From IMG/VR virus record IMGVR_UViG_3300032401_001693, positions 1-64,000 of that record: a stretch of 64,000 bases of DNA; one strand, given 5' to 3'. Under the pieces are notes generated by a model. The model was not told the DNA's origin. It was given only the letters and a program-made list of their open reading frames with translations, and searched no databases. A program made the translations under genes and the position numbers. Of this stretch, positions 13,516 to 55,211 are shown piece after piece. The first letter of the stretch is position 1; each line of letters opens with the position of its first letter. This DNA comes from a virus.

Positions 13516-14928
13516 GTGCGTAAAAGAGTCCCATCCCACCATCTGATACCTAAGAAAGTCCCAGTAAAAGGCAAGACACCATATATTGCAGTAAGATGGG
13601 TTGCTTTAGGTCCTGCAGAAACCAAAAAAGAGATAAAAGGTTGGGTAAGAACCAGGAAACGAAGAACCTCTGCCGTTAGATACCTACAGAAACATCCATT
13701 AAGTGTTGAAATCATTCCAAAATCTGAGTTGGAAAGAGTAATAGAACCTAATAAGGCTGGGAAGCGCTACTTTTCTAAGAAGGAAGTTGAAAAGATTAAG
13801 TTCGTAATGGAGATGAAGAATCCTAGTGAAGCTAATGGTATAACTAGGATCATACATATGGAGAGTGGTGGTAACTATATCCAGCATGTGGATGAATGGA
13901 CTCAGAAAAGGAAAAGAACCAAGTTTAAACGAAGTGCTAAGATTAAAATGGGTGGTCTTAGGGAATACTATAAGTCTTTACTTAAGAGACCCGGAGCGGA
14001 TAAGAAAAGGCAGTTAGGAGCTGTTCTGGCACTAATGAGTGGAGAATGCCACGATCCTCCCAAGAATGTTAGAGTGGGGAGTGGTATTGGTGGTGTAGAA
14101 GAGTCAGTTATAAAGGTAGCTGATCTTAAACGAGGAATGGTTGTATCTCATACGGGTTGGAAACCTGGGACGCTGCCGCATGTAGTGGTAGAAGAAAAAG
14201 ATATCCATGGGATGAAGCATATCTTTCTTAGGAGTATAGACAAGAAAGAGGAAGGGAAAGAATTAGGTAGATATAGGAGTAAAGTAAAGACCCTTGAAAA
14301 GCAGTTGCTTAAGGATCCTCGTAATATAGATAAGAAGCTAGAATTAGAGACTTTCCAGAATAAAGCAACCAAATTGGCTAATGAAATCAATATATCTATC
14401 CCACCTAAATGGACTGAAGTGACTAGATTAGGTCACTATGGTGCCTGTCAAATAGAAGCCCGCCATGTTAAATTCCCAGCTCCTAATGAAGTATGGTTAG
14501 ACTTTATCGGTAAATCTGGAGAAAGATGGAATCTAAAGATAATAGATCACGATTTAGCCGAAGCTATAAAAGACTGCCAACGCGGTAAATCTGGTAATGA
14601 TCAGATATTCCCAGAGGTAGATCGTAACGAAGCTGCTAGAAAAGCTAAGAAGTATGGCATAGCAACACCTAAAGATATTAGAACTTACACGGGAACTAAG
14701 GTTTACGTGGAAGAGTGGAAGAGGCATACCACTCCTACTACTAAGAAAGAACTCAGGGAAATGAAGAAGGACGTGTATACGTTAGTAAGTCAAAAATTAG
14801 GTAATCTACCAGGGACGGCTAAAGGTTCCTATGTAGATCAAACAGTGGCAGTAGCTTTAGAAGCGGGTGTATTGGAGAAAATGAATCTAAAAAAGTCGAT
14901 GCTGTATATAGTAATGGAGGCTATATGA
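13516..14928 (+). CDS. DNA topoisomerase IB
   Basis: 470 residues, GTG start after GGGG. The C-terminal half matches type IB topoisomerase: IEARHVKFPAPNEVWLDFIGKSGERW, then TPKDIRTYTGT containing the conserved Arg, and the nucleophile Tyr439 in TAKGSYVDQ. These enzymes relax supercoils through a 3'-phosphotyrosine link. The N-terminal 120 residues are extra and begin with VPVKGKTPYIAVRW, a segment also found near the start of the kinase-like protein at 35931, so it is probably a shared leader. A tyrosine recombinase is less likely given these motifs. Confidence 0.85.
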   Translation: MRKRVPSHHLIPKKVPVKGKTPYIAVRWVALGPAETKKEIKGWVRTRKRRTSAVRYLQKHPLSVEIIPKSELERVIEPNKAGKRYFSKKEVEKIKFVMEMKNPSEANGITRIIHMESGGNYIQHVDEWTQKRKRTKFKRSAKIKMGGLREYYKSLLKRPGADKKRQLGAVLALMSGECHDPPKNVRVGSGIGGVEESVIKVADLKRGMVVSHTGWKPGTLPHVVVEEKDIHGMKHIFLRSIDKKEEGKELGRYRSKVKTLEKQLLKDPRNIDKKLELETFQNKATKLANEINISIPPKWTEVTRLGHYGACQIEARHVKFPAPNEVWLDFIGKSGERWNLKIIDHDLAEAIKDCQRGKSGNDQIFPEVDRNEAARKAKKYGIATPKDIRTYTGTKVYVEEWKRHTTPTTKKELREMKKDVYTLVSQKLGNLPGTAKGSYVDQTVAVALEAGVLEKMNLKKSMLYIVMEAI

Positions 14929-15002
14929 AACAGATTTATGTAGTTAGTCTAGGAGAAAGGGTAAGCGGGAACTATGGGAAAGCTAAACAAGAAAGTAAAT
15001 AA
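14925..15002 (+). pseudogene. Degenerate copy of type A leader
   Basis: An ATGA-coupled frame encodes MKQIYVVSLGERVSGNYGKAK and stops after 25 residues. The first nine residues match the MKQVYVVSLDEEFEKA leader of the following genes, then it diverges. It is probably a decayed cassette; it overlaps the next gene. Confidence 0.5.
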
Positions 15003-15180
15003 GTTTGGACCTATTAAATACTATTTTTGTAATTACTGTGGTAAAGGTGTAAGTTCGATTAATATAGTTTGGGGGTGGAACCCAGGACCATCAATCTATT
15101 GCTCAGAGTCTTGTAAAACTAAAATAGACAAAAAGGAGGTTTTACCAAATGAAACAAGTTTATGTAGTAACGTTGGATGA
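14974..15180 (+). CDS. Zinc-finger protein
   Basis: 68 residues. CNYCGKG and CSESCK resemble a four-Cys FCS/treble-clef finger. Its last 32 bases overlap the leader of the next gene and read it out of frame to stop at the TGA inside GGATGA. The original C terminus was probably replaced when the leader cassette arrived. Confidence 0.65.
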   Translation: MGKLNKKVNKFGPIKYYFCNYCGKGVSSINIVWGWNPGPSIYCSESCKTKIDKKEVLPNETSLCSNVG

Positions 15181-15394
15181 GGAGTTTGAGAAGTCTAAGT
15201 TGGAGAAAGGCAGAGGCCCAGATAAGAAACCTAGAAAAAAGAGAACTAATAAGTGGGCAGGTTACAAAGAATATGCTGCTAAGATGAAAAAGAAATATCC
15301 TAATGAGCCTGCTCAGAAATGGATGAATGAGTGGACTAGTCGGTTCCCAAGTGATAAGAAGAGAATGAGAAATTTTTTGAATACGATTGGCTAG
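15149..15394 (+). CDS. Basic protein with type A leader
   Basis: 81 residues. MKQVYVVTLDEEFEKSK is followed by the basic segment EKGRGPDKKPRKKRTNK and a Lys-rich helical body. AAAAGGAGG precedes the start. I infer a small internal head protein, by analogy with T4 internal proteins that have a cleavable targeting peptide and a basic mature part. Its first half is duplicated without the leader at 15528. Confidence 0.65.
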   Translation: MKQVYVVTLDEEFEKSKLEKGRGPDKKPRKKRTNKWAGYKEYAAKMKKKYPNEPAQKWMNEWTSRFPSDKKRMRNFLNTIG

Positions 15395-15818
15395 AAGATG
15401 AGGAAGACCTTTTAGCTGATTTAGAAGACTATGCCCCAGATCAAATACTAGGGGCTAAAGATATCAAACCTAGGAAAAAGAGAACTCGAGGGAACTGGTA
15501 TGCCCCAAAAAGTTATGAAAAAAAGATGAGTTTGAGAAGTCTAAGTTGGAGAAAGGCAGAGGCCCAGATAAGAAACCTAGAAAAAAGAGAACTAATAAGT
15601 GGGCAGGTTACAAAGAATATGCTGCTAAGATGGAAAAGAAATATCCTAATGAGCTAGAATCCAAGTTGATTGATAGGATGGGACTCGACATGAAGCATCC
15701 TGGTGAAATAGAAAGAGGATATCAGAATGATCAGAAAGTATATGATGTTGAAGATTTGAAGAAGTTAACAGATAAGGACCTTAAGCTTCTTCACCGGGAA
15801 ATATTTGTGTCCTCCTGA
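15389..15818 (+). pseudogene. Scrambled duplicate of neighbouring cassette genes
   Basis: Bases 15389-15448 nearly repeat 15947-16006, 15467-15529 exactly repeat 16083-16145, and 15528-15654 repeat 15182-15308 with one mismatch. The result is a chimera. Its long frame (15519 to 15818) encodes KDEFEKSKLEKGRGPDKKPRKKR and a 65-residue new C terminus, but the leader MKQVYVVTL is lost. Only a TTG at 15546 without a ribosome site could start it. Confidence 0.6.
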
Positions 15819-15837
15819 TTAACTTCGGGAAGGAAAA

Positions 15838-16023
15838 ATGACAGACCAAGAATTCGTAGATTTCTTAAATGATTTATGGCCTTCTGAGAATCCAGAAGAG
15901 GATGAAAGACTCTGGCAGGAGGACTTTGATCGTAGGCACCAAGAGTGGCTAGAAGATGAGGAAGATCTTTTAGCTGATTTAGAAGACTACGCTCCCGATC
16001 AAATAGAGGAGGATTTAGAATGA
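15838..16023 (+). CDS. Small acidic protein
   Basis: 61 residues, strongly acidic (DEEDLLADLEDYAPDQIEEDLE). GGGAAGG precedes it and it is coupled by ATGA to the basic leader protein downstream. Part of its end is duplicated at 15389. An acidic partner for the basic proteins is possible but unproven. Confidence 0.6.
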   Translation: MTDQEFVDFLNDLWPSENPEEDERLWQEDFDRRHQEWLEDEEDLLADLEDYAPDQIEEDLE

Positions 16024-16199
16024 AACAAGTGTATGTAGTTAGTTTAGACGAAGAATTCGAGAAAGCTAGAGGTCCAGATAAGAAACCTAGGAAAAAGAGA
16101 ACTCGAGGGAACTGGTATGCCCCAAAAAGTTATGAAAAAAAGATGAAACGAAAACTAACTAAGGAAGGTTTTAGGGAATGGAAGAAAGAGAATGGATAA
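16020..16199 (+). CDS. Basic protein with type A leader
   Basis: 59 residues: MKQVYVVSLDEEFEKA, then RGPDKKPRKKRTRGNW and a Lys-rich tail. It is coupled by ATGA to the acidic gene before it. It is a minimal example of the leader-plus-basic-body layout. I infer a packaged internal head protein. Confidence 0.6.
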   Translation: MKQVYVVSLDEEFEKARGPDKKPRKKRTRGNWYAPKSYEKKMKRKLTKEGFREWKKENG

Positions 16200-16236
16200 T
16201 TAGGACACAGGATTAGATAATGGGGCCAAAAAGTGA

Positions 16237-17031
16237 ATGAGACGAGTAAGGAGTTACGCAGATTGGGACAAAGACGTGAAACTTGATCGTGATGTGAGGC
16301 AGTCTCCAGCGCCTATAAACCATAAAAGAATAGAAGCAGTTACAGTATGTGTAAACTATGGGGACTTTTTAGCTCATACTATTTTATGGAATAAAGCACT
16401 CTTCGACAAATGGGTCATAGTAACTTCTCCAGTAGATATTCATACTAGGCGATTGTGTGAGTTTCATAATGTTGAGTGTATTCTTACTAATGCTTTTTTT
16501 GAAGAGGGAATGATAATCAACAAAGCTAAAGGCATAAATGTAGGGTTCAATAAATTGAAAGGTGAAGACTGGGTCTTACACATAGATGCCGATATGGTTT
16601 TGCCCCCTTTGTTTAGGCACACTATAGATAAAATAGCCCTAGACACTGAAGTTTTATACGGCATAGATAGGATGATGTGTAATAATAGGAAAGACTGGGA
16701 TAAGTTTGTGGAAGATCCTATTATCCAAATGGAAGCAGGAGTATTTGTCCACTTTGAACCATTTCATCTGTCACCAAGGATCTATCAGCCAGAACGTGGT
16801 GGGTATGTTCCTATAGGATTTTTTCAGTTGTTCCATTCTAGTGCTTCTTCATTGGGTGGTAAATTAGAATACCCTACTACTCCAGCTGGGGTGGATAGGA
16901 CAGATATGGAGTTTGCATTGAAATGGCCAGGTTCTTTGAGGAGGTTATTACCAGAGTTTGTGGCTATTCATTTAGCTACTGCTAACACTGGTGGGGCTAA
17001 CTGGGAAGGTAGAAGGACAGCTAAATTCTAG
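16237..17031 (+). CDS. GT-A-type glycosyltransferase
   Basis: 264 residues. The sequence has a GT-A nucleotide-sugar fold: AVTVCVNYGDFLAHTILWN near the start, then HIDADMVLPP with the DxD metal motif (about residues 110-116). No signal or membrane span is seen, so it acts in the cytoplasm. The acceptor is unknown; fibre Ser/Tyr, DNA base or host glycan are all possible. It lies 2 kb upstream of the radical SAM and fibre genes. Confidence 0.75.
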   Translation: MRRVRSYADWDKDVKLDRDVRQSPAPINHKRIEAVTVCVNYGDFLAHTILWNKALFDKWVIVTSPVDIHTRRLCEFHNVECILTNAFFEEGMIINKAKGINVGFNKLKGEDWVLHIDADMVLPPLFRHTIDKIALDTEVLYGIDRMMCNNRKDWDKFVEDPIIQMEAGVFVHFEPFHLSPRIYQPERGGYVPIGFFQLFHSSASSLGGKLEYPTTPAGVDRTDMEFALKWPGSLRRLLPEFVAIHLATANTGGANWEGRRTAKF

Positions 17032-17196
17032 GAGGAAATATGAAAGAGTTGTATATAGTAAGTTTAGACGAAGAGTTTGAGAAAGCTAGAAAACTAGGAG
17101 CTAAAGATAAAAAGGAGGAAATATGAAAGAGTTGTATATAGTAAGTTTAGACGAAGAGTTTGAGAAAGCTAGAAAACTAGGAGCTAAAGATAAAAA
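17031..17196 (+). repeat. 83-base tandem duplication of a leader
   Basis: Bases 17031-17113 are repeated exactly at 17114-17196, including the GGAGG site, the ATG and 27 codons of the type A leader. The duplication looks recent. Confidence 0.9.
17040..17126 (+). CDS. Leader-only peptide (type A)
   Basis: 28 residues: MKELYIVSLDEEFEKARKLG followed by AKDKKEEI. It is the product of an exact 83-base tandem duplication and stops in the ATGA that starts the full-length copy. It may be a harmless by-product or a free leader peptide. Confidence 0.45.
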   Translation: MKELYIVSLDEEFEKARKLGAKDKKEEI

Positions 17197-17410
17197 GAAG
17201 AGGAAGAGACGTGGAGGGGGAAACCCGAATATCTCTATGAATAGATTTGTAGGTGCGGTGGAGGAACTAGAATCTAAATCTTGGAAAGTAAATGAACGGG
17301 TAAATGATTGGCTGGACGGTACAAAGGATGAGAAGTTAGATGCTTTAGCTAAGAAACATGGTGTGACTAAAAAGCAGGTTGAGGAGCACGTTCAAAAAGA
17401 GTACTATTAG
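17123..17410 (+). CDS. Basic protein with type A leader
   Basis: 95 residues: MKELYIVSLDEEFEKA, basic GAKDKKKRKRRGGG, then a helical domain with a small helix-turn-helix-like segment (LDALAKKHGVTKKQVEEHV). GGAGG precedes it. I infer an internal head protein with DNA-binding ability. Confidence 0.65.
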   Translation: MKELYIVSLDEEFEKARKLGAKDKKKRKRRGGGNPNISMNRFVGAVEELESKSWKVNERVNDWLDGTKDEKLDALAKKHGVTKKQVEEHVQKEYY

Positions 17411-17435
17411 AAAATTGAACAAGGAGGCATGAAAC

Positions 17436-17666
17436 ATGAACAGATTGACTTTTGAAGACGCGTTTGTAATGGAGATTGTGGTTAACAAAATCAATGAGAT
17501 TATCGAATATGTAGAAAAGGTAGAAGAGGGTTTGCATAGTAGGGTTGACGCACTTTGGAAATATCAAAGGGTTAAGAAAGATGAGATGGAGAAACGTCTG
17601 CGAGAAATGGAAGACCTTCTAGGAGTGAAAAACAACAGGAAGGTAGATAGAAATGAAACCCAATAA
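17436..17666 (+). CDS. Small coiled-coil protein
   Basis: 76 residues, helical (VVNKINEIIEYVEKVEEGLHSRVDALWKY), AAGGAGG upstream of the start. It overlaps the next gene by 14 bases. The function is unknown. Confidence 0.6.
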   Translation: MNRLTFEDAFVMEIVVNKINEIIEYVEKVEEGLHSRVDALWKYQRVKKDEMEKRLREMEDLLGVKNNRKVDRNETQ

Positions 17667-17850
17667 CGGAGTTCGTAGTTGTCTCAAATGTGATAAGTCT
17701 TTCTCAGGCAAGGGTTTTCGACTATGTACTAAATGTAGGAAAGAAAACGAAAATACTTGGGATTTGGGAGCTAGATATGTTTCTCATATTACAGAAGTTA
17801 TTAGATATAGAGAAAGTAGAAAATGGGCAGAAATGGGTTGGGATTCTTAA
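17653..17850 (+). CDS. Zinc-finger protein
   Basis: 65 residues with CLKCDKSF and CTKCRKEN, a small treble-clef/ribbon with the pattern CxxCxxxFxSxGxRxCxxC common in phage proteins. The end overlaps the next start by one base. It may bind nucleic acid. Confidence 0.65.
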   Translation: MKPNNGVRSCLKCDKSFSGKGFRLCTKCRKENENTWDLGARYVSHITEVIRYRESRKWAEMGWDS

Positions 17851-18023
17851 TGGCTAAGATGGCAATGGAATGGAAGACTTATATCTTTCATTGTACAAAA
17901 TGCCACCACGAGTGGGAAAGTGCTTTCAGTGTTGAACCACAAGTTTGTGATTGGTGTAAAGCTGACGGTAAACTTTTAGAAAAGGAGAATTATGGAAAAG
18001 GGAATAGTCAGAACGTTGGATGA
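17850..18023 (+). CDS. Zinc-ribbon protein
   Basis: 57 residues from ATG 17850 with CTKC and CDWC. Its last 32 bases overlap the leader of the next gene and it ends in NVG-stop inside the TLDE codons, exactly as the zinc-finger gene at 14974 does. This suggests that a leader cassette replaced its original 3' end. Confidence 0.6.
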   Translation: MAKMAMEWKTYIFHCTKCHHEWESAFSVEPQVCDWCKADGKLLEKENYGKGNSQNVG

Positions 18024-18981
18024 AGTTTTAGAAAAAGGTAGAGGTCCTGATAAGCAACCCAGGAAGAGAAGTCATAGAAAGCACCTTACTTTGGGTGAAT
18101 TGAAGCACTGGAAAGAAACCAGTAATCCATACCGCACAGAAGAGAAGCATAAGAGACATGTGGAAGAAAGAAGGTTAAAGGACAAGAAGGTTGCTATGGT
18201 AGAGCACTTGGAGAAATCTAACTCTACGCCTAAACTAACCAAAGATGAGGCACGAGAATGGTTGAATCTAAAAATTAGACAGTGGACTAAGAGCGGGATC
18301 CAAAGTTGTCCAAAAAAGGAAGGTCAAGGTCCTACTGTTGATAAGATCTCTAATCGTATTTGGGAGAGGCTGGTAGATGAGTGGGGTTATAATCCGACGA
18401 TTCTTAGTGCTTGTCGGGCTGTAAACTGTGATCAGGAGTATGTAACCTCAATAGTTTCTAGTTTCTTTGATATGGATGGGAAACCTTTTGAGATAAAAGA
18501 CGAACATGACTTAGTAGGTATGGAACCTAAACAGGCTGAGCAGTATGCTGATACGGCTAGACCGTATTATGCTTCTTTGGTTTCTCTTGACGAAGCTGTA
18601 TTGGAGAAAGCAAGAACTAAGGGAGCTAAAGATAAGGAAAAGAGAAAGAGAAAGTATCATCCTGGAAGTATAGCTGGTTATCTCGAAGAGAACCCAGCAG
18701 ATAGAAGAAAGAGAAGTGCTTCTAGAATAGCCAGGGCATCTGAAGCTAAAACCAGGAAACACGAAAATGCTGGATTTGAGAAGCTTTGGGATACTGAGGT
18801 CAAGAAATCGAACTCAACACCCAACGAGGCCGTATTGGAGAAGTCTAAAGGTGGCTTTAGACTTGCAAGAGGAGAAAAGGGAGAAGAAGAAAAGAAGAGT
18901 ACTAAAAAAGAGAGGAAAGCTGAAGGCCGTAGCTATCATGTAGAACGATTAGTAGAAAGAACTAAAGAAAGGAACAATTAG
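17992..18981 (+). CDS. Multi-leader basic protein
   Basis: 329 residues, very basic. It contains three type A-like segments: residues 7-24 (LDEVLEKGRGPDKQPRKR), about 199-220 (SLDEAVLEKARTKGAKDKEK) and about 280-290 (NEAVLEKSKGG). If the VLE-K sites are cut by the prohead protease, this would be a precursor releasing three basic peptides. The body contains a helical domain with two Cys and no recognised enzyme motif. Confidence 0.65.
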   Translation: MEKGIVRTLDEVLEKGRGPDKQPRKRSHRKHLTLGELKHWKETSNPYRTEEKHKRHVEERRLKDKKVAMVEHLEKSNSTPKLTKDEAREWLNLKIRQWTKSGIQSCPKKEGQGPTVDKISNRIWERLVDEWGYNPTILSACRAVNCDQEYVTSIVSSFFDMDGKPFEIKDEHDLVGMEPKQAEQYADTARPYYASLVSLDEAVLEKARTKGAKDKEKRKRKYHPGSIAGYLEENPADRRKRSASRIARASEAKTRKHENAGFEKLWDTEVKKSNSTPNEAVLEKSKGGFRLARGEKGEEEKKSTKKERKAEGRSYHVERLVERTKERNN

Positions 18982-18989
18982 GAGGTTTT

Positions 18990-19919
18990 ATGCCAAAAGA
19001 AGGTATGCACATCAGTGTGCCTAAACCGAAACCCAAAACTCCTAAACTATATGAGTTTGAGGATGCCTACAGAAGAGGTATTTGTAAGGATGCTATCCTG
19101 GTTGGTATCCAGGCAAAAAATACTCCCATTCATCAAGGCCATATTGAGTTGATAGAGTTTGCTCACACTCTTGGTAGGGTAGTAGTTCAGATAAATATGA
19201 ACTCGCTTGAGTATATTGGTTTTCTAGCCACTGGAGAAAAAAGAACGTCAGTTAAGGAGGATATAGGATTGGAGGTTGCCTCAATCGGAGAGGTTGGGGT
19301 TTCTGATATAGTGCTAAAAAGACACGAGGTTGATTCTATTTCTGAAAGTGAGAGGGAGGATAGGAAAGCCAGAGCAGATAGGGTACTACAGGTTTTGAAA
19401 AATGTCTACATTTCTGATACTAGGATGAATCAGTGTCGCATAAGGTTCATGCAGTATCATGATAGTATGAAGAGAATACCTCGTGGGCAGTTGCCAAAGA
19501 TAGCTGTATTAGGTCCCGAGTTGGAAAACTTTTTTGTAAAGGCGGCACTTAAGCATATAGCTTCACTTGGTCATCCAGTGGTAGACCAGATAGTTATTTT
19601 TCCAAAGGTGGTGAAAGATGAGTATGGGTTAAGGTTTAGAACCAGCTACCCAAAGGTGATAGGTGCGGATGAAATAGATTTGCTTAGAACTCTACCTCCA
19701 AAAGTAGACCAGCTAAGGAAGGATTTTCATATTGGTACTAATCCAGAAGTGGTAATACGTGAAAATGCTCTTCTACCTAAAGATTCAAAGTGGAGATACT
19801 GGGAAATTATTATATATGAAGGGGAATTTTTTGGTAACGGTAGGTTGGAATCTGTGACTTTCGGATTACAAATTGAGAATGGGATACATCTTATAGAGGA
19901 GATTAGTTATGTTAAGTAA
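18990..19919 (+). CDS. HxGH nucleotidyltransferase-like protein
   Basis: 309 residues, TAGGAGG start. AKNTPIHQGHIELIEFAHTLGRVVVQINMN has the HxGH motif and Rossmann pattern of cytidylyl/adenylyltransferases and pantothenate synthetase-like enzymes, which activate a small molecule with a nucleotide. The C terminus is unassigned. It is the first gene of a coupled run with a GNAT-like and two radical SAM enzymes, suggesting one pathway. Confidence 0.65.
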   Translation: MPKEGMHISVPKPKPKTPKLYEFEDAYRRGICKDAILVGIQAKNTPIHQGHIELIEFAHTLGRVVVQINMNSLEYIGFLATGEKRTSVKEDIGLEVASIGEVGVSDIVLKRHEVDSISESEREDRKARADRVLQVLKNVYISDTRMNQCRIRFMQYHDSMKRIPRGQLPKIAVLGPELENFFVKAALKHIASLGHPVVDQIVIFPKVVKDEYGLRFRTSYPKVIGADEIDLLRTLPPKVDQLRKDFHIGTNPEVVIRENALLPKDSKWRYWEIIIYEGEFFGNGRLESVTFGLQIENGIHLIEEISYVK

Positions 19920-20628
19920 AGAATGGGCGAGGTTAGTACCGGTGGGTGGTATTGTTGTTCATCAGGATGTGCTTTACAAGGATGCCAATGATGTTCATCT
20001 AGAAGAAAGAAACCAGGTTAAGAAACTTTTTTATGAAGATAGAGAATATATGAGTTTGATTGGGGTGGGATTACCACGCTATACCACTATGGGGCTTAAT
20101 AAGCAGTTTGCTGTATATATCTATAACCATGGTGACGACCTGGTTGGGCTTATCGTAGGCTATGAATTGCTAAAAAATCCTGATGGATATGGAAAAGATG
20201 ACTACTTTTATGCAAAATTAGTGCACCCAAAGTATAGACGATCAAAGTATTCTAGGCACATGGAATCGGCTTTTTTCTATATGATATTCTTTTCGGGTGT
20301 TGCAAAAAGATTATATACTTATGCTCCATATACAGGTGATGATACTAATCTTTTAACCATGATGGATTTGAAACGAATGCCTTGTTCTTCTGCTGGTTTG
20401 GGCTGTACTGGGTGGGGGACAAAGTTTTGTGATTTTATGTCGATTCCAAAAAAGGTACAGGTTTATGGAAAGCCTCACGTTATACTGCAACTTGACGGTG
20501 ACATGTATAGGGGACTAGAGGAGAAGGATTTCATAGAAGCGGCGCCAGATAAGGATCCTCAGGTAATTAGAGATTGGTTGAAAGATGTTAACAAAGGATC
20601 AACAGCAATTAGAGAAATTCAGAAATGA
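19909..20628 (+). CDS. GNAT-like acyltransferase
   Basis: 239 residues. AVYIYNHGDDLVGLIVGYELL, DYFYAKLVHPKYRRSKYSRHME and FFYMIFFSGVAKRLYTY follow the GNAT order: strand pair, acyl-CoA loop (HPKYRRSKYS), then the helix. It overlaps both neighbours. It is probably a tailoring enzyme for whatever the radical SAM pair modifies. Confidence 0.55.
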   Translation: MLSKEWARLVPVGGIVVHQDVLYKDANDVHLEERNQVKKLFYEDREYMSLIGVGLPRYTTMGLNKQFAVYIYNHGDDLVGLIVGYELLKNPDGYGKDDYFYAKLVHPKYRRSKYSRHMESAFFYMIFFSGVAKRLYTYAPYTGDDTNLLTMMDLKRMPCSSAGLGCTGWGTKFCDFMSIPKKVQVYGKPHVILQLDGDMYRGLEEKDFIEAAPDKDPQVIRDWLKDVNKGSTAIREIQK

Positions 20629-21665
20629 ACACTTTAACTTTATTTGTCAATATATCTAATGAATGCCAAAAGAAGTGTGATCATTGCTACTCTTCAAATT
20701 CTGGTGGTAAAATGGATAGGAAGGTAGTAGAAGAAGTAGTAGGATGGTCTTCAGGTATTTTTAAAGAGGAGAAGTCTAAAAAGTTGAAGCTAGTTTTATT
20801 GGGAGGAGAACCTTTAACTAATATGGATAACTGCTTATACATGGTTGATCTGTTCGAAAGGTATGTCCCTGAGGCTCTACCTCCTGTTTTTGATGTTAAA
20901 TATACACTGGCAACTAATGGAGATTTGATCACGACAGAAGTTTTAAAAGAACTTAAATCTAGAGGTATAAGAATTGCTCTTAATCCATCATATGATAGCC
21001 TTCAAGATGTAGAAAATAAAATTTTGAAAATTAAAGAAGTATGTAAAGGCTGTGCTTTATTTGTTTGTCTCAATGATGCTAACTTATCAAGGGCTACTGA
21101 GATAGCTAAATTGGCTGTAAAGCATAACTGCTTTATTAGAATAAACCGAATGTACCAAGGGTCAAATAATTCTGAATACATAGAGGAATATGGAAGGAAA
21201 GCATCAGAGATGCTAGATGTGTTACTGGCTTTTCCGAAACCAGCTTGGCCTAACTGGGTTATAGATTCAGTTTTTCCTTTGAGACTTAATGGGAATAAGA
21301 ATTCTTATTCCTGCGGAAAGGGATTGTTTGTAGTGGATTGGGATGGAATGCTGAGGAGTTGCAACCCAGACTATGACTCAACTATTGGAAGCATTAGGAC
21401 TCATTTACATTTGAAAGATTTTATATTTCCTCAAAAATGGAACGCTGAGGATTTGTCAGAATGTAAGGAGTGTAGCTGGTTAAATTTATGCCAAGGAGGA
21501 TGTCCGTACACTAGAAAGATAGCCTATGGAATTTATGGTAGGAAGACCCCATTTTGTGAAGTTCATAAGAAAATATGGCCCAAACTTTTGGAATTGACTG
21601 AGAAGTGGAAAAACTCCCACAGAGAGCTATATGAAAAATTTACATATAATAATGTATGTCAGTAA
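20625..21665 (+). CDS. Radical SAM-SPASM enzyme 1
   Basis: 346 residues, coupled by ATGA. The radical SAM cluster motif is CQKKCDHCY, followed by LLGGEPL (GGE motif). The C terminus has SPASM-type cysteines (SCGKGLFVVDWDGMLRSCNPD ... CKECSWLNLCQGGCPY). This class carries extra iron-sulfur clusters and usually modifies peptides or proteins, for instance by crosslinking or oxidation. A paralog follows and a Gly-Tyr-Ser fibre gene lies 1 kb downstream. Confidence 0.85.
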   Translation: MNTLTLFVNISNECQKKCDHCYSSNSGGKMDRKVVEEVVGWSSGIFKEEKSKKLKLVLLGGEPLTNMDNCLYMVDLFERYVPEALPPVFDVKYTLATNGDLITTEVLKELKSRGIRIALNPSYDSLQDVENKILKIKEVCKGCALFVCLNDANLSRATEIAKLAVKHNCFIRINRMYQGSNNSEYIEEYGRKASEMLDVLLAFPKPAWPNWVIDSVFPLRLNGNKNSYSCGKGLFVVDWDGMLRSCNPDYDSTIGSIRTHLHLKDFIFPQKWNAEDLSECKECSWLNLCQGGCPYTRKIAYGIYGRKTPFCEVHKKIWPKLLELTEKWKNSHRELYEKFTYNNVCQ

Positions 21666-22671
21666 CAGATGCAATAGAAGTTGTCCAGAATGCTACTATC
21701 CGCATGGAGATGGTGTAATGACTTCTGAGGTAATGGATAAAGTATCTAACTGGATTATTTCTACTTGCCAAGATGAAAAAGTAAAATGGGTGAAAGTTAA
21801 CTTCCTTGGTGGTGAGCCTATAATGGATAAGGAAATAATTTTTTCTATACTGAATAAGCTAGAAGAGGGACTGCCTTTTCATACGAGGGCACATCCAGAA
21901 TATAAGTATAGTGTATTTACTAATGGGGACTTTATTACTAGCGAATTTCTTCACAAAGCTAAGCAGTTTGATTTAAGAGTATGTATAAATCCAGCTACTG
22001 CTTCTTTGGGTGAAGTGGAGGATAAGATTCAAAAGGTTCTTAGTGTACTTACTCATTGTGGGTTAGCTCCAGTCTTTGATGAGCTGAATATGGGAAGAGC
22101 CAAAGAACTGGCTGAATTAGCGGTTAAGTATGATTGTTCTACTTTAAGAATCAATAGGCTATATGATGGAGCTAATAGAGAAGGATATTTGACTAAGTAC
22201 AAGAAGGCTATGCATGATGTTTTTGATGTTCTTTTATTTGCTCCAAAGCCTATATATCCTAATTCAATAATGGAAACGACTTATCCTGTGTATCCAGGAA
22301 CTATAATCCCACTGACCAAAGGAGACAATCCATACTGCTGTGGTTCGTGGTTGGCAATCATAGATTGGGATGGAACTTTGAGAAGTTGTAACCCTGATTT
22401 ATCAACAGTTGTAGGGCACATAGACACTCATAAGTTTAGTGATCTAAGGTTTCCTCAACGGTGGTCAGCCGAAGGTTTCGAAGAGTGTCAAGTTTGTCAA
22501 TGGGTAGATGTGTGCCAAGCGGGTTGTCCTTACACAAGAAAACTTACTTATGGTACCTATAATAAGAAAACTCCATTTTGTGAGGCATTTAAGGAACTTT
22601 TTCCTAGATTGTTTCAGTTAACTGAAAAGTGGAGGAACTATAAGATCTCCTCTATAAGATGTATCCCATAA
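21631..22671 (+). CDS. Radical SAM-SPASM enzyme 2
   Basis: 346 residues, a paralog of the preceding enzyme. CNRSCPECYYPHG is the cluster motif, FLGGEPI follows, and the SPASM cysteines are CCGSWLAIIDWDGTLRSCNPD and CQVCQWVDVCQAGCPYTRK. It overlaps the first by 35 bases and ends 27 bases before the fibre gene. Two similar but distinct copies suggest successive steps or a heterodimer. Confidence 0.85.
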   Translation: MKNLHIIMYVSNRCNRSCPECYYPHGDGVMTSEVMDKVSNWIISTCQDEKVKWVKVNFLGGEPIMDKEIIFSILNKLEEGLPFHTRAHPEYKYSVFTNGDFITSEFLHKAKQFDLRVCINPATASLGEVEDKIQKVLSVLTHCGLAPVFDELNMGRAKELAELAVKYDCSTLRINRLYDGANREGYLTKYKKAMHDVFDVLLFAPKPIYPNSIMETTYPVYPGTIIPLTKGDNPYCCGSWLAIIDWDGTLRSCNPDLSTVVGHIDTHKFSDLRFPQRWSAEGFEECQVCQWVDVCQAGCPYTRKLTYGTYNKKTPFCEAFKELFPRLFQLTEKWRNYKISSIRCIP

Positions 22672-22698
22672 AAGAGGCTAATCTCAGGAGGTAGAAAG

Positions 22699-24000
22699 AT
22701 GTCGAATGGTTATAGTGGGTTTGTTCCAGATTGGGGAGCATCAGGTAATATTCTAAAAAGTGATGGTACTAAATGGATATCTTCAAGCTCTATAGATATA
22801 AAGTCTTTAGACATGGGAGCAGCTCAGTACACTATTCCGTGGCCGGTAGGGGTGACTCCAGATCCTGCTCTTGGTCATGCCTACTATAAATCAGATACTA
22901 AGCAACTATTAATAGGAGATGGTGTAACTGCTAATCCAGTAAGTGGAGGGTCTTCAGGCTATAGTGGCTATAGTGGCAGGTCAGGCTACTCAGGAGTAGG
23001 AATACTGGGTATCTCAGGTTATTCCGGGTATAGTGGTAGGTCGGGTTTTTCAGGGTTAAATGGAATAGCTACAGCTTCTGGATATTCAGGATATTCAGGA
23101 GTAGGAGGTCTAGGTGTTTCGGGCTATTCTGGCAAAGGTGGATCTAATTTTGTTCATAACCAGGTTGTGAATTCTACTACTTGGATTATAAACCATAATT
23201 TAGGAATGAGGGAGGTTTTAGTTCAGGTATTTAATAGTACTGGTAATCAAATAATTCCTCAATCAGTCGTTTGGGGAACTGCTAATCAGTGTATTATTTC
23301 ATTATCTACTGCCACTATAGGAACGGCAGTAGTTTCTAGTGGTGGTGGGGTATCAGGTTTTTCAGGATATTCGGCGTTAGGAGGATCAGGCACTGGTATA
23401 TCTGGTTATTCTGGTTATTCTGGCCCACAAGGATTTATGGGAGTGCCAGGAGCAGGTGGTCAGTCTGGGTTTAGTGGCTGGTCAGGCAAAGATGGTCAAT
23501 TAGGTATATCTGGATTTTCAGGACCTCAGGGAGGGACTGGTATTCAAGGTTATTCTGGATTTAGCGGGTACTCAGGACCTCAAGGATTTGTAGGATATGG
23601 TATATCTGGTTATAGTGGTAAAGATGGTCAAGCTTCTGCTTCTGGGTATTCTGGGTTTTCCGGTTTAGGAGTTTCTGGGTGGAGTGGATTTAGTGGACTA
23701 ACTGGACCGCAGGGAGTACCAGGAACTACTGGGGTAGGAGTTAGTGGGCTCTCAGGCTATTCAGGAGCGTCTGGAACTGGAGGAGGTACAAGCAGGTATC
23801 TTTCAACTAGGTTTACTAGTTCTTCAGTGGTAACTGTTTCTCATAATTTTGGTGTTATTCCTAATGTGGTTGTGGTAAGAGATAGGACTGATGGGAAATG
23901 GGATGTAATTAATCCAAGGCTTATAGTTCATAGCAACTTTAACCAAGTGACAGTTACTTTACAATGGTCTGTTACTGGTTATGTTATTTGTAACGCATAA
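22699..24000 (+). CDS. Collagen-like Gly-Tyr-Ser fibre protein
   Basis: 433 residues, AGGAGG start. An N-terminal domain (GASGNILKSDGTKW ... YYKSDTKQLLIGDG) is followed by runs of Gly-Tyr-Ser and other Gly-X-Y triplets. A beta-type module (WIINHNLG ... VVSSGG) sits within the repeats, and the protein ends in a C-terminal VTVSHNFG head. Collagen-like triplets form trimeric shafts in phage tail fibres. Both the N-terminal and the HNLG modules recur in the giant fibre at 60799. It follows two radical SAM enzymes and may be their substrate. Confidence 0.85.
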   Translation: MSNGYSGFVPDWGASGNILKSDGTKWISSSSIDIKSLDMGAAQYTIPWPVGVTPDPALGHAYYKSDTKQLLIGDGVTANPVSGGSSGYSGYSGRSGYSGVGILGISGYSGYSGRSGFSGLNGIATASGYSGYSGVGGLGVSGYSGKGGSNFVHNQVVNSTTWIINHNLGMREVLVQVFNSTGNQIIPQSVVWGTANQCIISLSTATIGTAVVSSGGGVSGFSGYSALGGSGTGISGYSGYSGPQGFMGVPGAGGQSGFSGWSGKDGQLGISGFSGPQGGTGIQGYSGFSGYSGPQGFVGYGISGYSGKDGQASASGYSGFSGLGVSGWSGFSGLTGPQGVPGTTGVGVSGLSGYSGASGTGGGTSRYLSTRFTSSSVVTVSHNFGVIPNVVVVRDRTDGKWDVINPRLIVHSNFNQVTVTLQWSVTGYVICNA

Positions 24001-24007
24001 GGAGTGT

Positions 24008-24226
24008 ATGAATAGTTTTCCGAATGGTCTTAGACAGATAGAAGGTATGCACCTAGATCTATTGGGAATAGAAATAGGTTTGTTTGAAGGTTATATAGGG
24101 AACTACGTGGTGATAATGCGGGATGGTGATAAGGTAAAGGGTATTTCCTGTTTATCTTTGGAGCACGCAATGGAGATTTACTCAGGTTGTGTAGAAAGAG
24201 TTAGGATTAGATATTTATTAAACTAA
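24008..24226 (+). CDS. Small hypothetical protein
   Basis: 72 residues from ATG 24008 (AAGGAG upstream), preferred to the in-frame ATG 23981 that overlaps the fibre gene. The sequence is mixed alpha/beta, without a recognised family. Confidence 0.6.
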   Translation: MNSFPNGLRQIEGMHLDLLGIEIGLFEGYIGNYVVIMRDGDKVKGISCLSLEHAMEIYSGCVERVRIRYLLN

Positions 24227-24237
24227 GGAGGCTTAAT

Positions 24238-24348
24238 ATGAAACAGGTTTATGTAGTAACGTTGGATGAAGAGTTTGAGAAAGCTAGGAAACCAGGAGCT
24301 AAAGATAGGAAACCCAGGTACTGGTCAGCCAGGAACTTATATTCCTAA
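24238..24348 (+). pseudogene. Frameshifted type A leader gene
   Basis: MKQVYVVTLDEEFEKARKPG is followed by a stop after 36 residues. A shifted frame continues PGTYIPKALRRAYEKRIKQGNLD to a stop near 24400, similar in style to the tail of the gene at 16020. The leader DNA is nearly identical to that at 15149. It is probably a recently broken basic protein gene. Confidence 0.6.
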
Positions 24349-34948: not shown

Positions 34949-35641
34949 ATGGAAAGGATAACCATGAGTGAAGTTAAGTTCCTAAAAGCTAGGATGCTGA
35001 GACCAGTGGGTGAAGATCCTCACCATAAAGCCTATACTCGTATAAAAGGAGGCAAACTGCAGAGAATTCCACAGAAGGGTGCTATCCTGCAGGAACGTGG
35101 TGAGATTCCTAAAGAGGGAGCTAGAGATAGGCTTGGTAATGACTATGCTAGATTTTCTAAGGATTTGGATGACTATTTTTCTTTGGACGTTGATCTAAAG
35201 AAACTAAAAAAGCAAGTGGAAGAATACGCTACAAAGAAAGAAGGTGTGATGTCTAGGATTCGTCCTTTACTATCTAAATTTGAAAATCTATCCAAAGAGG
35301 AGAATAAGTTTCAGACTGAGTTTGAGGCTAGTGGATTTAAGCATAAGTTTTTATCCTACCCAAGGGAAACTCTTCCCTACAAGGATTTGTTTGAGGAATC
35401 GTTCAAACGTCTTACTTCTAAAATGCAGAATGAAGTGGAGGGGTTGAAAGGTACTTTAAAACGAATAACAGCTATGGAAAAGTTCGAACGTATAGAAAAA
35501 TCCAGTAGTGATAAAATAGCTGATTATCTTAAGAATATCATTAGGTTAAAAGAAGAAGCAATTAAACATATGAAGACGATGGATGCTACTATTCATGGTA
35601 GGTTAGAAAAATCTCTATTTGTTATAGTGGAAGAGGAATGA
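34949..35641 (+). CDS. Coiled-coil protein with type B motif
   Basis: 230 residues. Near the N terminus FLKARMLRPVGED combines an RMLRP segment like the C-terminal tag of the 2-13 kb proteins with a type B motif (HKAYTRIKGGKLQRI). The rest is coiled coil. GGAGG precedes the start. It may be a core or cargo-adaptor protein of the head. Confidence 0.65.
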   Translation: MERITMSEVKFLKARMLRPVGEDPHHKAYTRIKGGKLQRIPQKGAILQERGEIPKEGARDRLGNDYARFSKDLDDYFSLDVDLKKLKKQVEEYATKKEGVMSRIRPLLSKFENLSKEENKFQTEFEASGFKHKFLSYPRETLPYKDLFEESFKRLTSKMQNEVEGLKGTLKRITAMEKFERIEKSSSDKIADYLKNIIRLKEEAIKHMKTMDATIHGRLEKSLFVIVEEE

Positions 35642-35931
35642 ACTACGTAATATTAAAAAAAGCTAAAGCCTACTCAAGAGTTAGACATGGTAAGTTGGAA
35701 CAGGTTAGAGCTACTCAAGGAGTAGCTTCTCAGGTGGTTCACTCTGAGGTGCTTAAATTGGTAGACAAATATGTGAAACTAATTCGTCAGAAGAAGGCTG
35801 GCAAAGATGTAGACAGCAAGATAGCTAAAGTTATGAAAAGATTAGATAGGTTAAGAAGCGGTGGCCATTTGCAGCCACCTAGGTATGGTGGTTCTGCTAG
35901 GGGTACTAGCACTTATAAGTTAGGATTTTAA
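35638..35931 (+). CDS. Basic protein with type B leader
   Basis: 97 residues starting MNYVILKKAKAYSRVRHGKLEQV, the type B leader, then a basic helical body and a Gly-rich tail. It is coupled by ATGA at both ends. I infer an internal head protein. Confidence 0.65.
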   Translation: MNYVILKKAKAYSRVRHGKLEQVRATQGVASQVVHSEVLKLVDKYVKLIRQKKAGKDVDSKIAKVMKRLDRLRSGGHLQPPRYGGSARGTSTYKLGF

Positions 35932-37412
35932 TGAAGTATATTATCTTAGAAAAAGTAAAACTACCTAATGTTGTACTAGAAAAAGCCTGGAGACATCATA
36001 GGAGGCCACTGGTAGCTAGAAAGGTTCCGGTTAAGCCAAAAACTGGAAGGCCCTATTTAGCAATAAGATGGACAGCGGGAGCTAGGACAGAGGAGTTGGG
36101 GGGAGATGTAGGCCGTCAGTTGAAAGCGTTAGTAGGGGAACTTACTGACCGCAGAGAAAAGATGTATATGAAGTATTATATCAGATATTTGTATGGTCAG
36201 AGGGGTAAGCCTGCCTATCCCCGCCCGTTGATGGATCCTATAGAGAACAGAGTAAGACCTGATATTCGAGATAAACACAGGTTGAAGGATTTTGAACGTA
36301 TAGCAAGAAGTATTATGGTAAACTTACCTCGCGCGAGGCATCAAGAAGCAGGTGAACCTCCAGACGTAAGATTAGACGAAAGAGCAGATAGGGAAGCTGA
36401 AAGGATGGAAAGAGAACGGAACCTTCCACCCAGGGCTGGAACTGAAAGAACTCAAATTCAGAGAATAGGAGTTGATTCTAACAAGATAGCAGAATACCTG
36501 AGAAAGAAAATAGCCCAAGGTCAGTATACTACTTGGGAAACTGCTATGGCTAGGGTAAAAGAAGTGTTTCCAGACCAATCTGATAGTAGATATGAGAGGT
36601 CATTGGAAAAGGCAGGACTTAGGAAACCTAGGCCAGAAGGTATCAAACTCGAACCCAATGAGTGGGAAGCTATAAGGGCTTTACCAGGTGGTCCACATAA
36701 GGAGTATTTTCAGGTTGGAGCTTTAGACGAAGTTGAAAAACTAGGTGGTGGAATAAATCAAACCTTTAGGATGAAGTTTAAAGATAATGGAGAAGGGTGT
36801 TGGAAACCATCTTGGGGTGAATCTCCGGCAAGGGCAGGCTTTATTAATAGGGGTTTTAAAGGAGAGTACTTCAGGAGAGAAGCAGCTACTTATTCAATAG
36901 CTAAGGTACTTGGGTTAGATGATTTGGTTCCTGAAACTTATGTTAGGAATGATCCTCAGGAAGGGGTAGGATCAGTAATGAGTTGGGTATGGGATGGTAA
37001 TGTGGAAGGTGGTGGGGATAGGAGAAATAGATATAAAAAAGATGAAATAAGAAGTGGGTTTTTAGATTTTATGTGTGAAAATATGGATAGGCACGGCCGT
37101 AATTTTTTCGTTACGAAGGGGGGCAAATTACAGTTAATAGATAACGGTTTGTCTTTTGGTAATAGTGATAACAGGTGGGATTTTACGCATAATGGTGAGT
37201 TAGTTGAAAGGGTGTTAAATAAAGAAGTTCCTCTAGAGCTTATGGAAAAGGTGGTAGATTCACAGGGGGAGGGAGAAAATGTTCTTAGGGTACTAGGTTT
37301 TGATAATAAAGCTATTAGTAACTATCGTAAAAGAGTAGGGATTGTTAAGAAGTATCTAGACAAAGGAAAAGCTATGTTGGAAGACCTAGTTGATGACTGG
37401 AGAAAATCATGA
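35931..37412 (+). CDS. PI3/PI4-kinase-like protein with cargo leader
   Basis: 493 residues. The leader is MKYIILEK with a second NVVLEKA, then KVPVKPKTGRPYLAIRW, matching the N terminus of the topoisomerase at 13516. A charged linker follows. The kinase core covers about residues 245-440: GGGINQTFRMKF (nucleotide loop), CWKPSWGE (Lys), FLDFMCENMDRHGRNFFV (catalytic DxHxxN) and LQLIDNGLSFG (metal-binding DNG). This resembles bacterial PI3/4-kinase-like and HipA/FAM20-type kinases. The target is probably a host protein or small molecule after injection. Confidence 0.75.
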   Translation: MKYIILEKVKLPNVVLEKAWRHHRRPLVARKVPVKPKTGRPYLAIRWTAGARTEELGGDVGRQLKALVGELTDRREKMYMKYYIRYLYGQRGKPAYPRPLMDPIENRVRPDIRDKHRLKDFERIARSIMVNLPRARHQEAGEPPDVRLDERADREAERMERERNLPPRAGTERTQIQRIGVDSNKIAEYLRKKIAQGQYTTWETAMARVKEVFPDQSDSRYERSLEKAGLRKPRPEGIKLEPNEWEAIRALPGGPHKEYFQVGALDEVEKLGGGINQTFRMKFKDNGEGCWKPSWGESPARAGFINRGFKGEYFRREAATYSIAKVLGLDDLVPETYVRNDPQEGVGSVMSWVWDGNVEGGGDRRNRYKKDEIRSGFLDFMCENMDRHGRNFFVTKGGKLQLIDNGLSFGNSDNRWDFTHNGELVERVLNKEVPLELMEKVVDSQGEGENVLRVLGFDNKAISNYRKRVGIVKKYLDKGKAMLEDLVDDWRKS

Positions 37413-39215: not shown

Positions 39216-39778
39216 ACTACGTAATTCTAAAAAAGTCTGTGGAAGGAAAGGTAATAGAGTTTCTTGCTGACAATCCAAATCCACCTGATAAGAAGATTCA
39301 TGACTTGTCGGATAGGCTGAAGATTAAAACAGACAAGTTTGAGGCGAAGATCTATGGGGTGCTTAGTGATGTTATTGAGCATGGAAATGGAGTAAAAGCT
39401 GACCCAAAAGAGTTAGCTATGGGTATCAAAATAGAAATGGAGCATACTAAGTATCCAGAACTTGCTAAATACATTTCTTTGGCCCATTTGAAAGAGATAC
39501 CGGACTACTATACACGCCTTAAGAAGATGGAAGAGGAAGCAAAAAGTATTAATAAAGCAGTAAAAGATTCTAAAACTATTACGATAAAGTGTTCTAAGCA
39601 AGCTTCGGAAGATCTTATTAGATTATTAGAACATTTGAAAGTATGGGGAAATATAGGACATTCTGGTAGTATACTGGCTGATCCGCCCTATGGTATTAAG
39701 GTTCCTAAAGATGGTAAAATGTTTGGTTTCGATGGTGACGGTTCGTCAAAGATTTGGAGTATAAAAGAATCCGAATGA
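39212..39778 (+). CDS. DUF5661-like protein with type B-style leader
   Basis: 188 residues. The N terminus MNYVILKKS is the leader seen in many neighbours. Residues about 67-110 (GIKIEMEHTKYPELAKYISLAHLKEIPDYYTRL) match the DUF5661-type phage segment, which is rich in conserved His/Glu and possibly binds metal. The rest is unassigned. It is coupled to the next gene by ATGA. Confidence 0.7.
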   Translation: MNYVILKKSVEGKVIEFLADNPNPPDKKIHDLSDRLKIKTDKFEAKIYGVLSDVIEHGNGVKADPKELAMGIKIEMEHTKYPELAKYISLAHLKEIPDYYTRLKKMEEEAKSINKAVKDSKTITIKCSKQASEDLIRLLEHLKVWGNIGHSGSILADPPYGIKVPKDGKMFGFDGDGSSKIWSIKESE

Positions 39779-41802: not shown

Positions 41803-41981
41803 GTAGTGAGATTCTAAATTTTCTTATATTAGTAGTGAGTGTGCTTTTGAATGTAATTCTTATTGCTCTAACTATTCTAGCATTTCAGGCTTGGGAACAT
41901 ACTTTACTAGGTTTTGTATTTTTGACTGCGGTTTTTATGGTAACTTTTGGGATTTATAAGATGCTGGAAAGAGCTGGATGA
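41799..41981 (+). CDS. Small membrane protein
   Basis: 60 residues, two membrane spans (FLILVVSVLLNVILIALTIL and GFVFLTAVFMVTFGI), coupled by ATGA on both sides. The function is unknown. Confidence 0.6.
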   Translation: MSSEILNFLILVVSVLLNVILIALTILAFQAWEHTLLGFVFLTAVFMVTFGIYKMLERAG

Positions 41982-42511
41982 ACTACGTAATATTAGAAAA
42001 ATCTCAGGTTAAAGGATTTACTAGGACTAGAAAAGGTAAGATGGAGAGAGTAAATCCTTTTTCAAGGAAGGGTGAGAAAAAAGTTAAATCTGTAGTTTTT
42101 CTTCATGGCACGACTACTGCTGTTTTGGAAAGTATACTGAAACATGGGTTAACAGCAAAGGCAGCAAGAATGTCTGTATTTATAGATACGAAACAGGGAT
42201 TTAAGAGAGGGGTATTTCTTACGTCCGATAGAAAAACTGCTGAGGCGTTTGCTTCTACGGCTTGGAGAGAGAAAGGAACCACATCGGTAGTTTTAGAGAT
42301 TAAGATTCCAGACGGCGAGAAATTGTATGGTGATCCTCCTCATAGTTCTAGGTTTCATGTAGGGAATATTCCGGCCTCTTGGATAAAAGCCTATTCTATA
42401 CAAAGTTCAGGCAGAAAATGGTCACGCACTCTTGTTAAGTCAAAACAGGAGCAAATTTTCTTTGTTCCTGTAGTTATTGTTAATACAAAGGAGAAAGAAA
42501 ATGATAAGTGA
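41978..42511 (+). CDS. ADP-ribosyltransferase-like protein with type B leader
   Basis: 177 residues. The leader MNYVILEKSQVKGFTRTRKGKME is followed by an ADP-ribosyltransferase-like core: VVFLHGTTTAVLESILKHGL (H/T of the NAD site), GVFLTSDRKTAEAFAST (Y/F segment) and late hydrophobic strands. This resembles the PARP/Tpt1-like branch. T4 packages its ADP-ribosyltransferase Alt in the head and cleaves its leader, which is the closest known parallel. The catalytic Glu is not certain. Confidence 0.7.
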   Translation: MNYVILEKSQVKGFTRTRKGKMERVNPFSRKGEKKVKSVVFLHGTTTAVLESILKHGLTAKAARMSVFIDTKQGFKRGVFLTSDRKTAEAFASTAWREKGTTSVVLEIKIPDGEKLYGDPPHSSRFHVGNIPASWIKAYSIQSSGRKWSRTLVKSKQEQIFFVPVVIVNTKEKENDK

Positions 42512-45385: not shown

Positions 45386-45724
45386 ATGTGGATCAAGATA
45401 AGAAAACTAAATAAAGCTATTTATCCTGGAAATTTAGGTTTGGTAGAAATGCATCAGTTTGTCAAGGAAGCTCCTGTGGGTCAGGCTGAGAAGTTTGTTC
45501 AACTACTGAAACAGGATAAAACTAGAGAAGCTGTAAAAATGTTGGAAGAGTTCACAAAAAAGAAGTTCCATCCGTCTATTCATGGCCTAAATCTTTTGCC
45601 TTCTCATAAGGATCCCAAAAAGAAGAGATGGCAGCATGTACTTTTACAAAAAGCTAAACCATATACTAGAACTCGTAAAGGCAAGTTTGAGAGAGTAAAG
45701 GGCTATAACAAAGGCTTGGAATAA
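45386..45724 (+). CDS. Small protein with C-terminal type B motif
   Basis: 112 residues. The body is helical and unrecognised; the C terminus is VLLQKAKPYTRTRKGKFERV, a clear type B copy, here at the end instead of the start. It is directly upstream of the large polyprotein. Confidence 0.6.
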   Translation: MWIKIRKLNKAIYPGNLGLVEMHQFVKEAPVGQAEKFVQLLKQDKTREAVKMLEEFTKKKFHPSIHGLNLLPSHKDPKKKRWQHVLLQKAKPYTRTRKGKFERVKGYNKGLE

Positions 45725-53878: not shown

Positions 53879-53952
53879 AAGTTACCATAAAGTTAGTAAT
53901 GGTAAAAGGATTAAAGTTAACTCGTTTATTAGAAACGAAGTTGAAAAAGAAT

Positions 53953-55155: not shown

Positions 55156-55211
55156 GTTTAGATGAAAGTTTTTTAACTTGATAGAAGAAAAGAAAGGAGG
55201 TGAAAACAATA

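What the first reader, a model, noticed from the sequence alone, without database searches (positions are those of the whole stretch)
14925..24348. Second label family (type A) with nucleotide-level cassette copying
The leader MKQVYVVxLDEEFEKA plus GAKDKKKRKRR or GRGPDKKPRKKR occurs at 14925, 15149, 16020, 17040, 17123, 17992, 24238 and 53953. The leader DNA of 15149 and 24238 is almost identical although the bodies differ. A shared leader with a basic mature part is the layout of T4 internal head proteins. LDE-E also fits [L/I]xE.
Basis: partly seen in the sequence, partly recalled or inferred. Interest (0 to 1): 0.82.

Follow-up and report, generated by a model that had tools for sequence, protein, structure and literature searches.

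The report
Cleavable capsid-entry labels on phage cargo
A family of small phage genes carries the same short front-end label, which most likely takes their basic proteins into the assembling virus head and is then cut off by the phage's own head protease, and the same kind of label sits on many other proteins of this virus and of a relative.

Summary
The leader family is real, but only part of the list is intact. ORFs 15149, 16020, 17123 and 17992 carry it, and 53899/53953 holds it internally. 14925, 17040 and 24238 are broken pieces. Leader DNA of 15149 and 24238 matches 42/45 nt while their bodies do not align. Three repeats of 64-127 bp (99-100% identical) show recent duplication.

The window belongs to a 101.8-kb phage with an SPO1-type head protease, scaffold and major capsid protein (MCP). 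The common denominator of the labels is hydrophobic-x-Lys|(Ala/Ser), not [L/I]xE. This is the conserved MCP site whose phage 812 homologue is deposited as a mature chain starting right after Lys24. The motif is enriched over its reversed control in this phage's head/cargo genes and in relatives' scaffolds; [L/I]xE[AS] is not.

The same site precedes other basic tags (RTRKGK here, SSEGAKKAWETRR in a relative, RTFTRMQWV-like in more distant SPO1-like phages). Tags are swapped between orthologues and conserved as peptide although synonymous sites are near saturation.

Best reading: cleavable prohead-entry leaders on ejected cargo, working like T4 capsid targeting sequences but with Lys-P1 cleavage. 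Virion location and cleavage are not shown.

The parts
14925..15002 (+). decayed type-A leader fragment (MKQIYVVSLGERVSG..., no basic tag)
   Evidence: 26-28/45 nt to other leaders, stop after 25 codons
15149..15394 (+). type-A gene 1 (81 aa): leader MKQVYVVTLDEEFEK|SKLEKGRGPDKKPRKKR + body
15388..15529 (+). chimeric remnant: partial copies of 15946-16005 (93%) and 16083-16146 (100%) fused, boundary inside label DNA
15522..15818 (+). leaderless duplicate of gene 1 (15528-15654 = 15182-15308, 99%)
16020..16199 (+). type-A gene 2 (59 aa): MKQVYVVSLDEEFEK|ARGPDKKPRKKR
17030..17114 (+). truncated tandem duplicate (RBS region + leader + tag) of 17113-17197
   Evidence: 85/85 nt
17123..17410 (+). 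type-A gene 3 (95 aa): MKELYIVSLDEEFEK|ARKLGAKDKKKRKRR
17992..18981 (+). type-A tandem protein (329 aa) with sites LDEVLEK|GRGPDKQPRKR, VEHLEK|SN, SLDEAVLEK|ARTKGAKDKEKRKRK (18586-18654), NEAVLEK|SK (18820)
24238..24348 (+). frameshifted type-A copy; leader 42/45 nt to 15149; body continues in the frame of ORF 24266-24400
53741..53878 (+). small protein ending LALEK|SRKDGSKKRKKNN; counterpart in relative ends SALEK|AKPKKKGKKIKGQDKQGNLGC
53899..54387 (+). DUF6496 protein with TLDEEFEK|AKKSKGQDK and DLVFK|ARIKGAKDKNKRKKK; alternative start 53953
   Evidence: PF20106 9.8e-10
52380..53642 (+). SPO1-type head maturation protease; own sites PLEIEK|AKKEG and FLVK|AINIAGYIRTRKGK
   Evidence: (phrog_1028 5.1e-48)
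54451..55155 (+). head scaffold with nine hxK[AS] sites (1 in reversed control)
55200..56630 (+). major capsid protein; conserved N-arm site QLNK|ALAAGYD
   Evidence: (phrog_752 1.6e-96)
45772..50496 (+). MuF polyprotein (MuF, 2H phosphoesterase, CCA-adding enzyme/HD, GSVARG stretch, PHEFGH stretch) with hxK|A + RTRKGK labels between segments
34949..35641 (+). label KFLK|ARMLRPV...YTRIKGGKLQRI; orthologue in G002 carries the WETRR tag at the same place
35638..35931 (+). type-B label MNYVILKK|AKAYSRVRHGK
35931..37412 (+). label PNVVLEK|AWRHHRRP on a PI3/PI4-kinase-like protein
39754..41802 (+). type-B label MNYVVLEK|AKPYFRTRKGK on a 682-aa protein
41978..42511 (+). type-B label MNYVILEK|SQVKGFTRTRKGK on a PARP/ADP-ribosyltransferase-like protein
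   Evidence: (PF00644 0.0017, below cut-off)
45386..45724 (+). C-terminal type-B label HVLLQK|AKPYTRTRKGK

Best explanation
The type-A genes encode small basic proteins destined for the inside of the phage head. The N-terminal 10-15 residues (xYVVSLDEEFEK) act as a prohead-entry leader. The SPO1-type head protease (52380-53642) cuts after the lysine in [LIVFM]-x-K|[AS], releasing the leader and leaving a mature protein that begins with a basic tag and is packaged with DNA and probably ejected into the host. The same kind of leader and site is used across the genome on other cargo and inside polyproteins, where it separates domains. Shown: the sequence family, the shared site, its coincidence with the conserved MCP site, its enrichment in head genes, and its association with several different basic tags. 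Inferred: protease specificity in this phage, virion location, ejection, and what the bodies do.
For: (1) Head module is SPO1-type: protease phrog_1028 5.1e-48, MCP phrog_752 1.6e-96, scaffold phrog_15087 (tblastn). (2) L-x-K-A is kept at one place in the otherwise variable MCP N-arm of 31 relatives. The homologous phage 812 MCP chain in 9ROW/9ROX/9ROZ starts at Ser, right after Lys24 of the full-length 5LII chain. (3) Scaffolds of 20 phages have 194 hxK[AS] vs 81 for the reversed pattern; [LI]xE[AS] 4 vs 25. (4) In this phage's head/cargo region [LIVFM][EK]K[AS] is 42 vs 8 reversed; in the distal, mostly sugar/glycosyltransferase-like region 3 vs 7. (5) Tags located without using the site: 14/15 WETRR tags in the relative have hxK|[ST] at the same offset, and 8/8 RTRKGK tags here have hxK[AS] just upstream. 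(6) Leader and tag are separable: G002 22354 has the type-A leader VISLDEEFEK followed by STESAKKAWKKRKHGK; orthologues of 17992, 34949 and the protease carry swapped tags. In 17992 a GPDKQPRKR cassette sits between leader and core where the orthologue joins them directly. (7) Identical tag residues use different codons at 0.46-0.53, near the codon-usage expectation, so the peptide is under selection. (8) The AF2 model of the 17992 segment has a folded core with low-confidence label regions on both sides. (9) Labelled proteins include ADP-ribosyltransferase-like and MuF/2H/CCA-enzyme proteins, fitting injected cargo as in T4 Alt and MuF polyvalent proteins (PMC9026906; PMC5512222).
Against: No virion or N-terminal data for this uncultured phage. 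The 812 chain start is a deposited sequence; no paper stating the cleavage was found in the library. hxK[AS] is short and also occurs by chance and inside domains, so single sites are weak. The copies are homologous, so counts are not independent. Entry into the prohead by the leader is by analogy with T4. The 53899 leader is not at the predicted N-terminus unless 53953 is the true start.
Confidence: 0.78

Rival explanations
1. The leaders are head-entry labels as proposed by the first reader but cut by a T4-like protease at [L/I]xE, i.e. true relatives of T4 internal proteins.
For: Leader contains LDE and LDEE; layout matches T4 IPs, which have a 10-residue capsid targeting sequence and divergent basic bodies (PMC9026906).
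Against: [LI]xE[AS] not enriched in head genes (22 vs 21), depleted in scaffolds (4 vs 25); several labels of these two genomes lack LxE but keep hxK (e.g. DLVFK|A, NYVILKK|A, YFVK|S, MRLVILK|S); protease and MCP are SPO1-type.
Confidence: 0.07
2. Repeated DNA only: tandem duplication and decay of one small gene family, spread by recombination, with no function for the shared leader.
For: Exact 85-bp and 64-bp and near-exact 127-bp duplications and several broken copies.
Against: Leader peptide and tags conserved while synonymous sites vary; the same site appears with unrelated tags in a relative and at orthologous positions.
Confidence: 0.07
3. The label directs proteins to another partner (tail, phage replication compartment, host chaperone or degradation) and hxK[AS] is a binding rather than a cleavage motif.
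For: Only sequence data exist; some labelled proteins (topoisomerase IB-like, nucleotidyltransferases) could act in replication.
Against: The site coincides with the MCP processing site, and is abundant in scaffold and protease, all head components; MuF is a head protein family.
Confidence: 0.08

Closest known systems
T4 internal proteins IPI-III and Alt with capsid targeting sequence (PMC9026906)
   Same: Short shared N-terminal leader over divergent, basic, co-packaged and ejected proteins; Alt is an ADP-ribosyltransferase, and an ART-like protein here also bears a label
   Different: Cleavage site here is hxK|[AS], not [L/I]xE|; labels also sit inside and at the ends of polyproteins; a second, basic, swappable tag follows the site; head genes are SPO1-type
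Salmonella phage SPN3US ejection proteins and protease gp245 (AXE|, Ser preferred at P1'; PMC10052503)
   Same: Same logic of a constrained P3, free P2, fixed P1 and small P1'; N-terminal propeptides on head and ejection proteins, C-terminal propeptide on the protease
   Different: P1 is Lys here; most SPN3US propeptides are long (111-254 aa), here about 8-15 aa
SPO1/Herelleviridae head module (SPO1 gp3.2, gp3.3, gp6.1; phage 812 MCP)
   Same: Homologous protease, scaffold and MCP; same hxK|[AS] sites in the scaffold, portal N-terminus and MCP
   Different: No type-A cargo family found in the SPO1 and P100 regions examined; more distant SPO1-like contigs L012 and L015 do have label-like N-termini beside the portal
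MuF polyvalent proteins (PMC5512222)
   Same: 45772 fuses MuF to 2H phosphoesterase, CCA-adding enzyme and further segments
   Different: That paper proposes autoproteolysis by built-in peptidase domains for some such proteins; here prohead-protease-like sites plus basic tags separate the segments

Membership tests
T4-type internal head proteins (CTS/gp21) | shared short N-terminal leader on divergent bodies | tested here: met
T4-type internal head proteins (CTS/gp21) | cleavage at [L/I]xE | tested here: not met
   motif not enriched; hxK[AS] is
T4-type internal head proteins (CTS/gp21) | basic mature protein | tested here: met
   +15, +13, +8
T4-type internal head proteins (CTS/gp21) | present inside virions and ejected | not testable with these tools
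   uncultured phage
SPO1-type proteolytic head maturation | homologous protease, scaffold, MCP in this order | tested here: met
SPO1-type proteolytic head maturation | MCP N-arm site at the column where mature phage 812 MCP starts | tested here: met
SPO1-type proteolytic head maturation | type-A leaders cut by this protease | not testable with these tools
   needs enzyme assay or N-terminomics
MuF polyvalent proteins | MuF domain fused to effector domains (neighbour 45772, not type A) | tested here: met
MuF polyvalent proteins | type-A proteins contain MuF or polyvalent domains | tested here: not met

The most novel reading that the evidence does not exclude
SPO1-like phages use a two-part, genome-wide cargo label: a cleavable hydrophobic-x-Lys leader for prohead entry, and a phage-specific basic tag that stays on the mature cargo protein and is kept uniform within one phage but swapped between phages, implying a phage-specific partner inside the head or in the host.
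Probability: 0.35. Interest if true: 0.82.

Novelty: new variant of a known kind. Interest (0 to 1): 0.68.

Why it matters
It gives a readable motif, hxK|[AS], for predicting which proteins of SPO1-like phages are packaged in the head and where they are cut. If correct, this phage injects a large set of enzymes (ADP-ribosyltransferase-like, 2H phosphoesterase/anti-CBASS-like, CCA-adding enzyme, kinase-like, and a topoisomerase in the relative). It would extend the T4 capsid-targeting idea to a second protease specificity, and it offers a portable address for loading cargo into SPO1-like heads.

Tried and rejected
Searching a type-A protein in viral contigs gave only spurious short matches (L055, L056). 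The WETRR labels and the 17992 core were found only in one relative, apparently recovered twice (contigs 3300018018_000009 and 3300038425_000083). The CCA-enzyme segment and genome-contig scans found nothing. tblastn of leader and tag against 50,697 phage records: no match. Alignment A2 had no stretch conserved enough to scan. No Pfam family for the 15149 and 17992 bodies. The AF2 model of the 17992 core (pLDDT 63 overall, 71-91 in the core blocks) had no significant Foldseek match. Papers: no open text stating the Lys cleavage in SPO1, A511 or 812 was found. Over whole SPO1 and P100 stretches hxK[AS] is not, or only slightly, enriched, so the signal there is confined to head genes.

Full report
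What is there. Four ORFs (15149, 16020, 17123, 17992) start with a type-A leader and go on with a lysine/arginine-rich tag; a fifth (53899, possible start 53953) has it near its start. The other listed places are pieces: 14925 lost the tag, 17040 is the front of an exact 85-bp repeat, 24238 is frameshifted. 15522 is an unlisted leaderless copy. The DNA relation is as described for 15149/24238 (42/45 nt, bodies unalignable), and the region is full of recent local duplications, several of whose borders lie in leader or tag DNA. Over the family as a whole, however, the peptide is held while codons differ, so selection acts on the protein.

Setting. The window is bases 1-64000 of a 101,811-base virus record. 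Its head genes are SPO1-type: protease 52380, scaffold 54451, MCP 55200. The 53741 and 53899 genes lie between protease and scaffold, and a relative (G002, 76 kb; MCP 76% identical) has small basic proteins at the same place, one with SALEK|AKPKKKGKK.

The shared site. Comparing labels within the genome shows that the part common to all is hydrophobic-x-Lys followed by Ala, Ser, Gly or Thr. This same string is the one conserved element at its place in the MCP N-arm of 31 relatives. The phage 812 MCP is deposited both as a 463-residue precursor (5LII) and as a 439-residue chain in 9ROW, 9ROX and 9ROZ that begins with the Ser after Lys24, at this column. Scaffolds, which head proteases digest, are loaded with it: 194 against 81 for the reversed pattern in 20 phages, while [LI]xE[AS] gives 4 against 25. 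In the window phage the strict form gives 42 against 8 in the head/cargo region and 3 against 7 in the distal region. Copies and relatives are not independent, so these numbers show direction rather than exact significance.

Two modules. Behind the site stand different basic tags: GPDKKPRKKR/GAKDKKKRKRR and RTRKGK in the window phage; SSEGAKKAWETRRHGGSH in G002 (15 copies, 14 with hxK|[ST] at the same offset). Distant SPO1-like phages have YIDLEK|A / LIIDVSK|A with RNGKTVVRKQWV or GGRTFTRMQWI beside the portal. Orthologues of 17992, 34949 and the protease carry swapped tags. G002 22354 joins the type-A leader to the WETRR tag, and G002 22106 has a type-A tag. In 17992 a tag cassette is inserted between leader and core relative to G002. 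Tag copies are near saturation at synonymous positions. The leader and the tag are therefore separate, selected modules.

Cargo. Labels occur on or in a MuF polyprotein with 2H phosphoesterase (Acb1-like, weak), CCA-adding enzyme and HD domains, a PARP-like protein below the curated cut-off, a PI3/PI4-kinase-like protein, and in G002 a topoisomerase IB polyprotein, a Kyano_Gp96 domain and a GNAT protein. These suit proteins injected with DNA, as for T4 Alt and polyvalent proteins (PMC9026906; PMC5512222).

Mechanism proposed. The leader enters the prohead (by analogy with the T4 capsid targeting sequence, whose first 10 residues suffice; PMC9026906); the protease cuts after Lys; the leader leaves; the basic mature protein remains with DNA and is ejected. 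The sequence pattern is shown; each biochemical step is inferred. The type-A bodies have no recognised domain apart from DUF6496 in 53899, so their action in the host is open; DNA binding is the simplest guess from charge.

Verdict. It works like T4 internal proteins but is not a member by the cleavage criterion; it belongs with SPO1-type head maturation. New variant of a known kind.

Noticed in passing
window 2329, 7461, 8441, 11974, 13439; G002 13425, 13893, 15384, 18954, 30391, 30597, 48726: A second short tag at or near C-termini: RRMLRPVK-like here, RRVIRT-like in the relative; again uniform within one phage and different between them.
   Followed up: partly
window 52380-53642 (residues 232-274): The head protease contains a copy of the MCP N-arm (27 of 43 residues identical to the relative's MCP), also in the relative's protease; possibly a decoy, targeting or self-cleavage segment.
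   Followed up: partly
window 45772-50496: MuF polyprotein with 2H phosphoesterase, tRNA nucleotidyltransferase/HD and later GSVARG and PHEFGH stretches; the relative's MuF protein carries a GHKL ATPase domain.
   Followed up: partly
window 24753-27953 and 31953-33905: Inteins in the portal protein and in a papain-like peptidase gene.
   Followed up: no
window 853, 33905, 39754: Recurrent motif SRSQARRI / SQARRKAVQ in three otherwise unrelated proteins.
   Followed up: no
window 13516-14928 and 35931-37412: Topoisomerase IB-like protein shares a stretch HHLIPKKVPVKGKTPYIAVRW with the PI4-kinase-like protein (HHRRPLVARKVPVKPKTGRPYLAIRW): possibly another shared tag.
   Followed up: no
window 22699-24000, 60799-64368: GYSGYSG collagen-like repeats in two proteins.
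   Followed up: no
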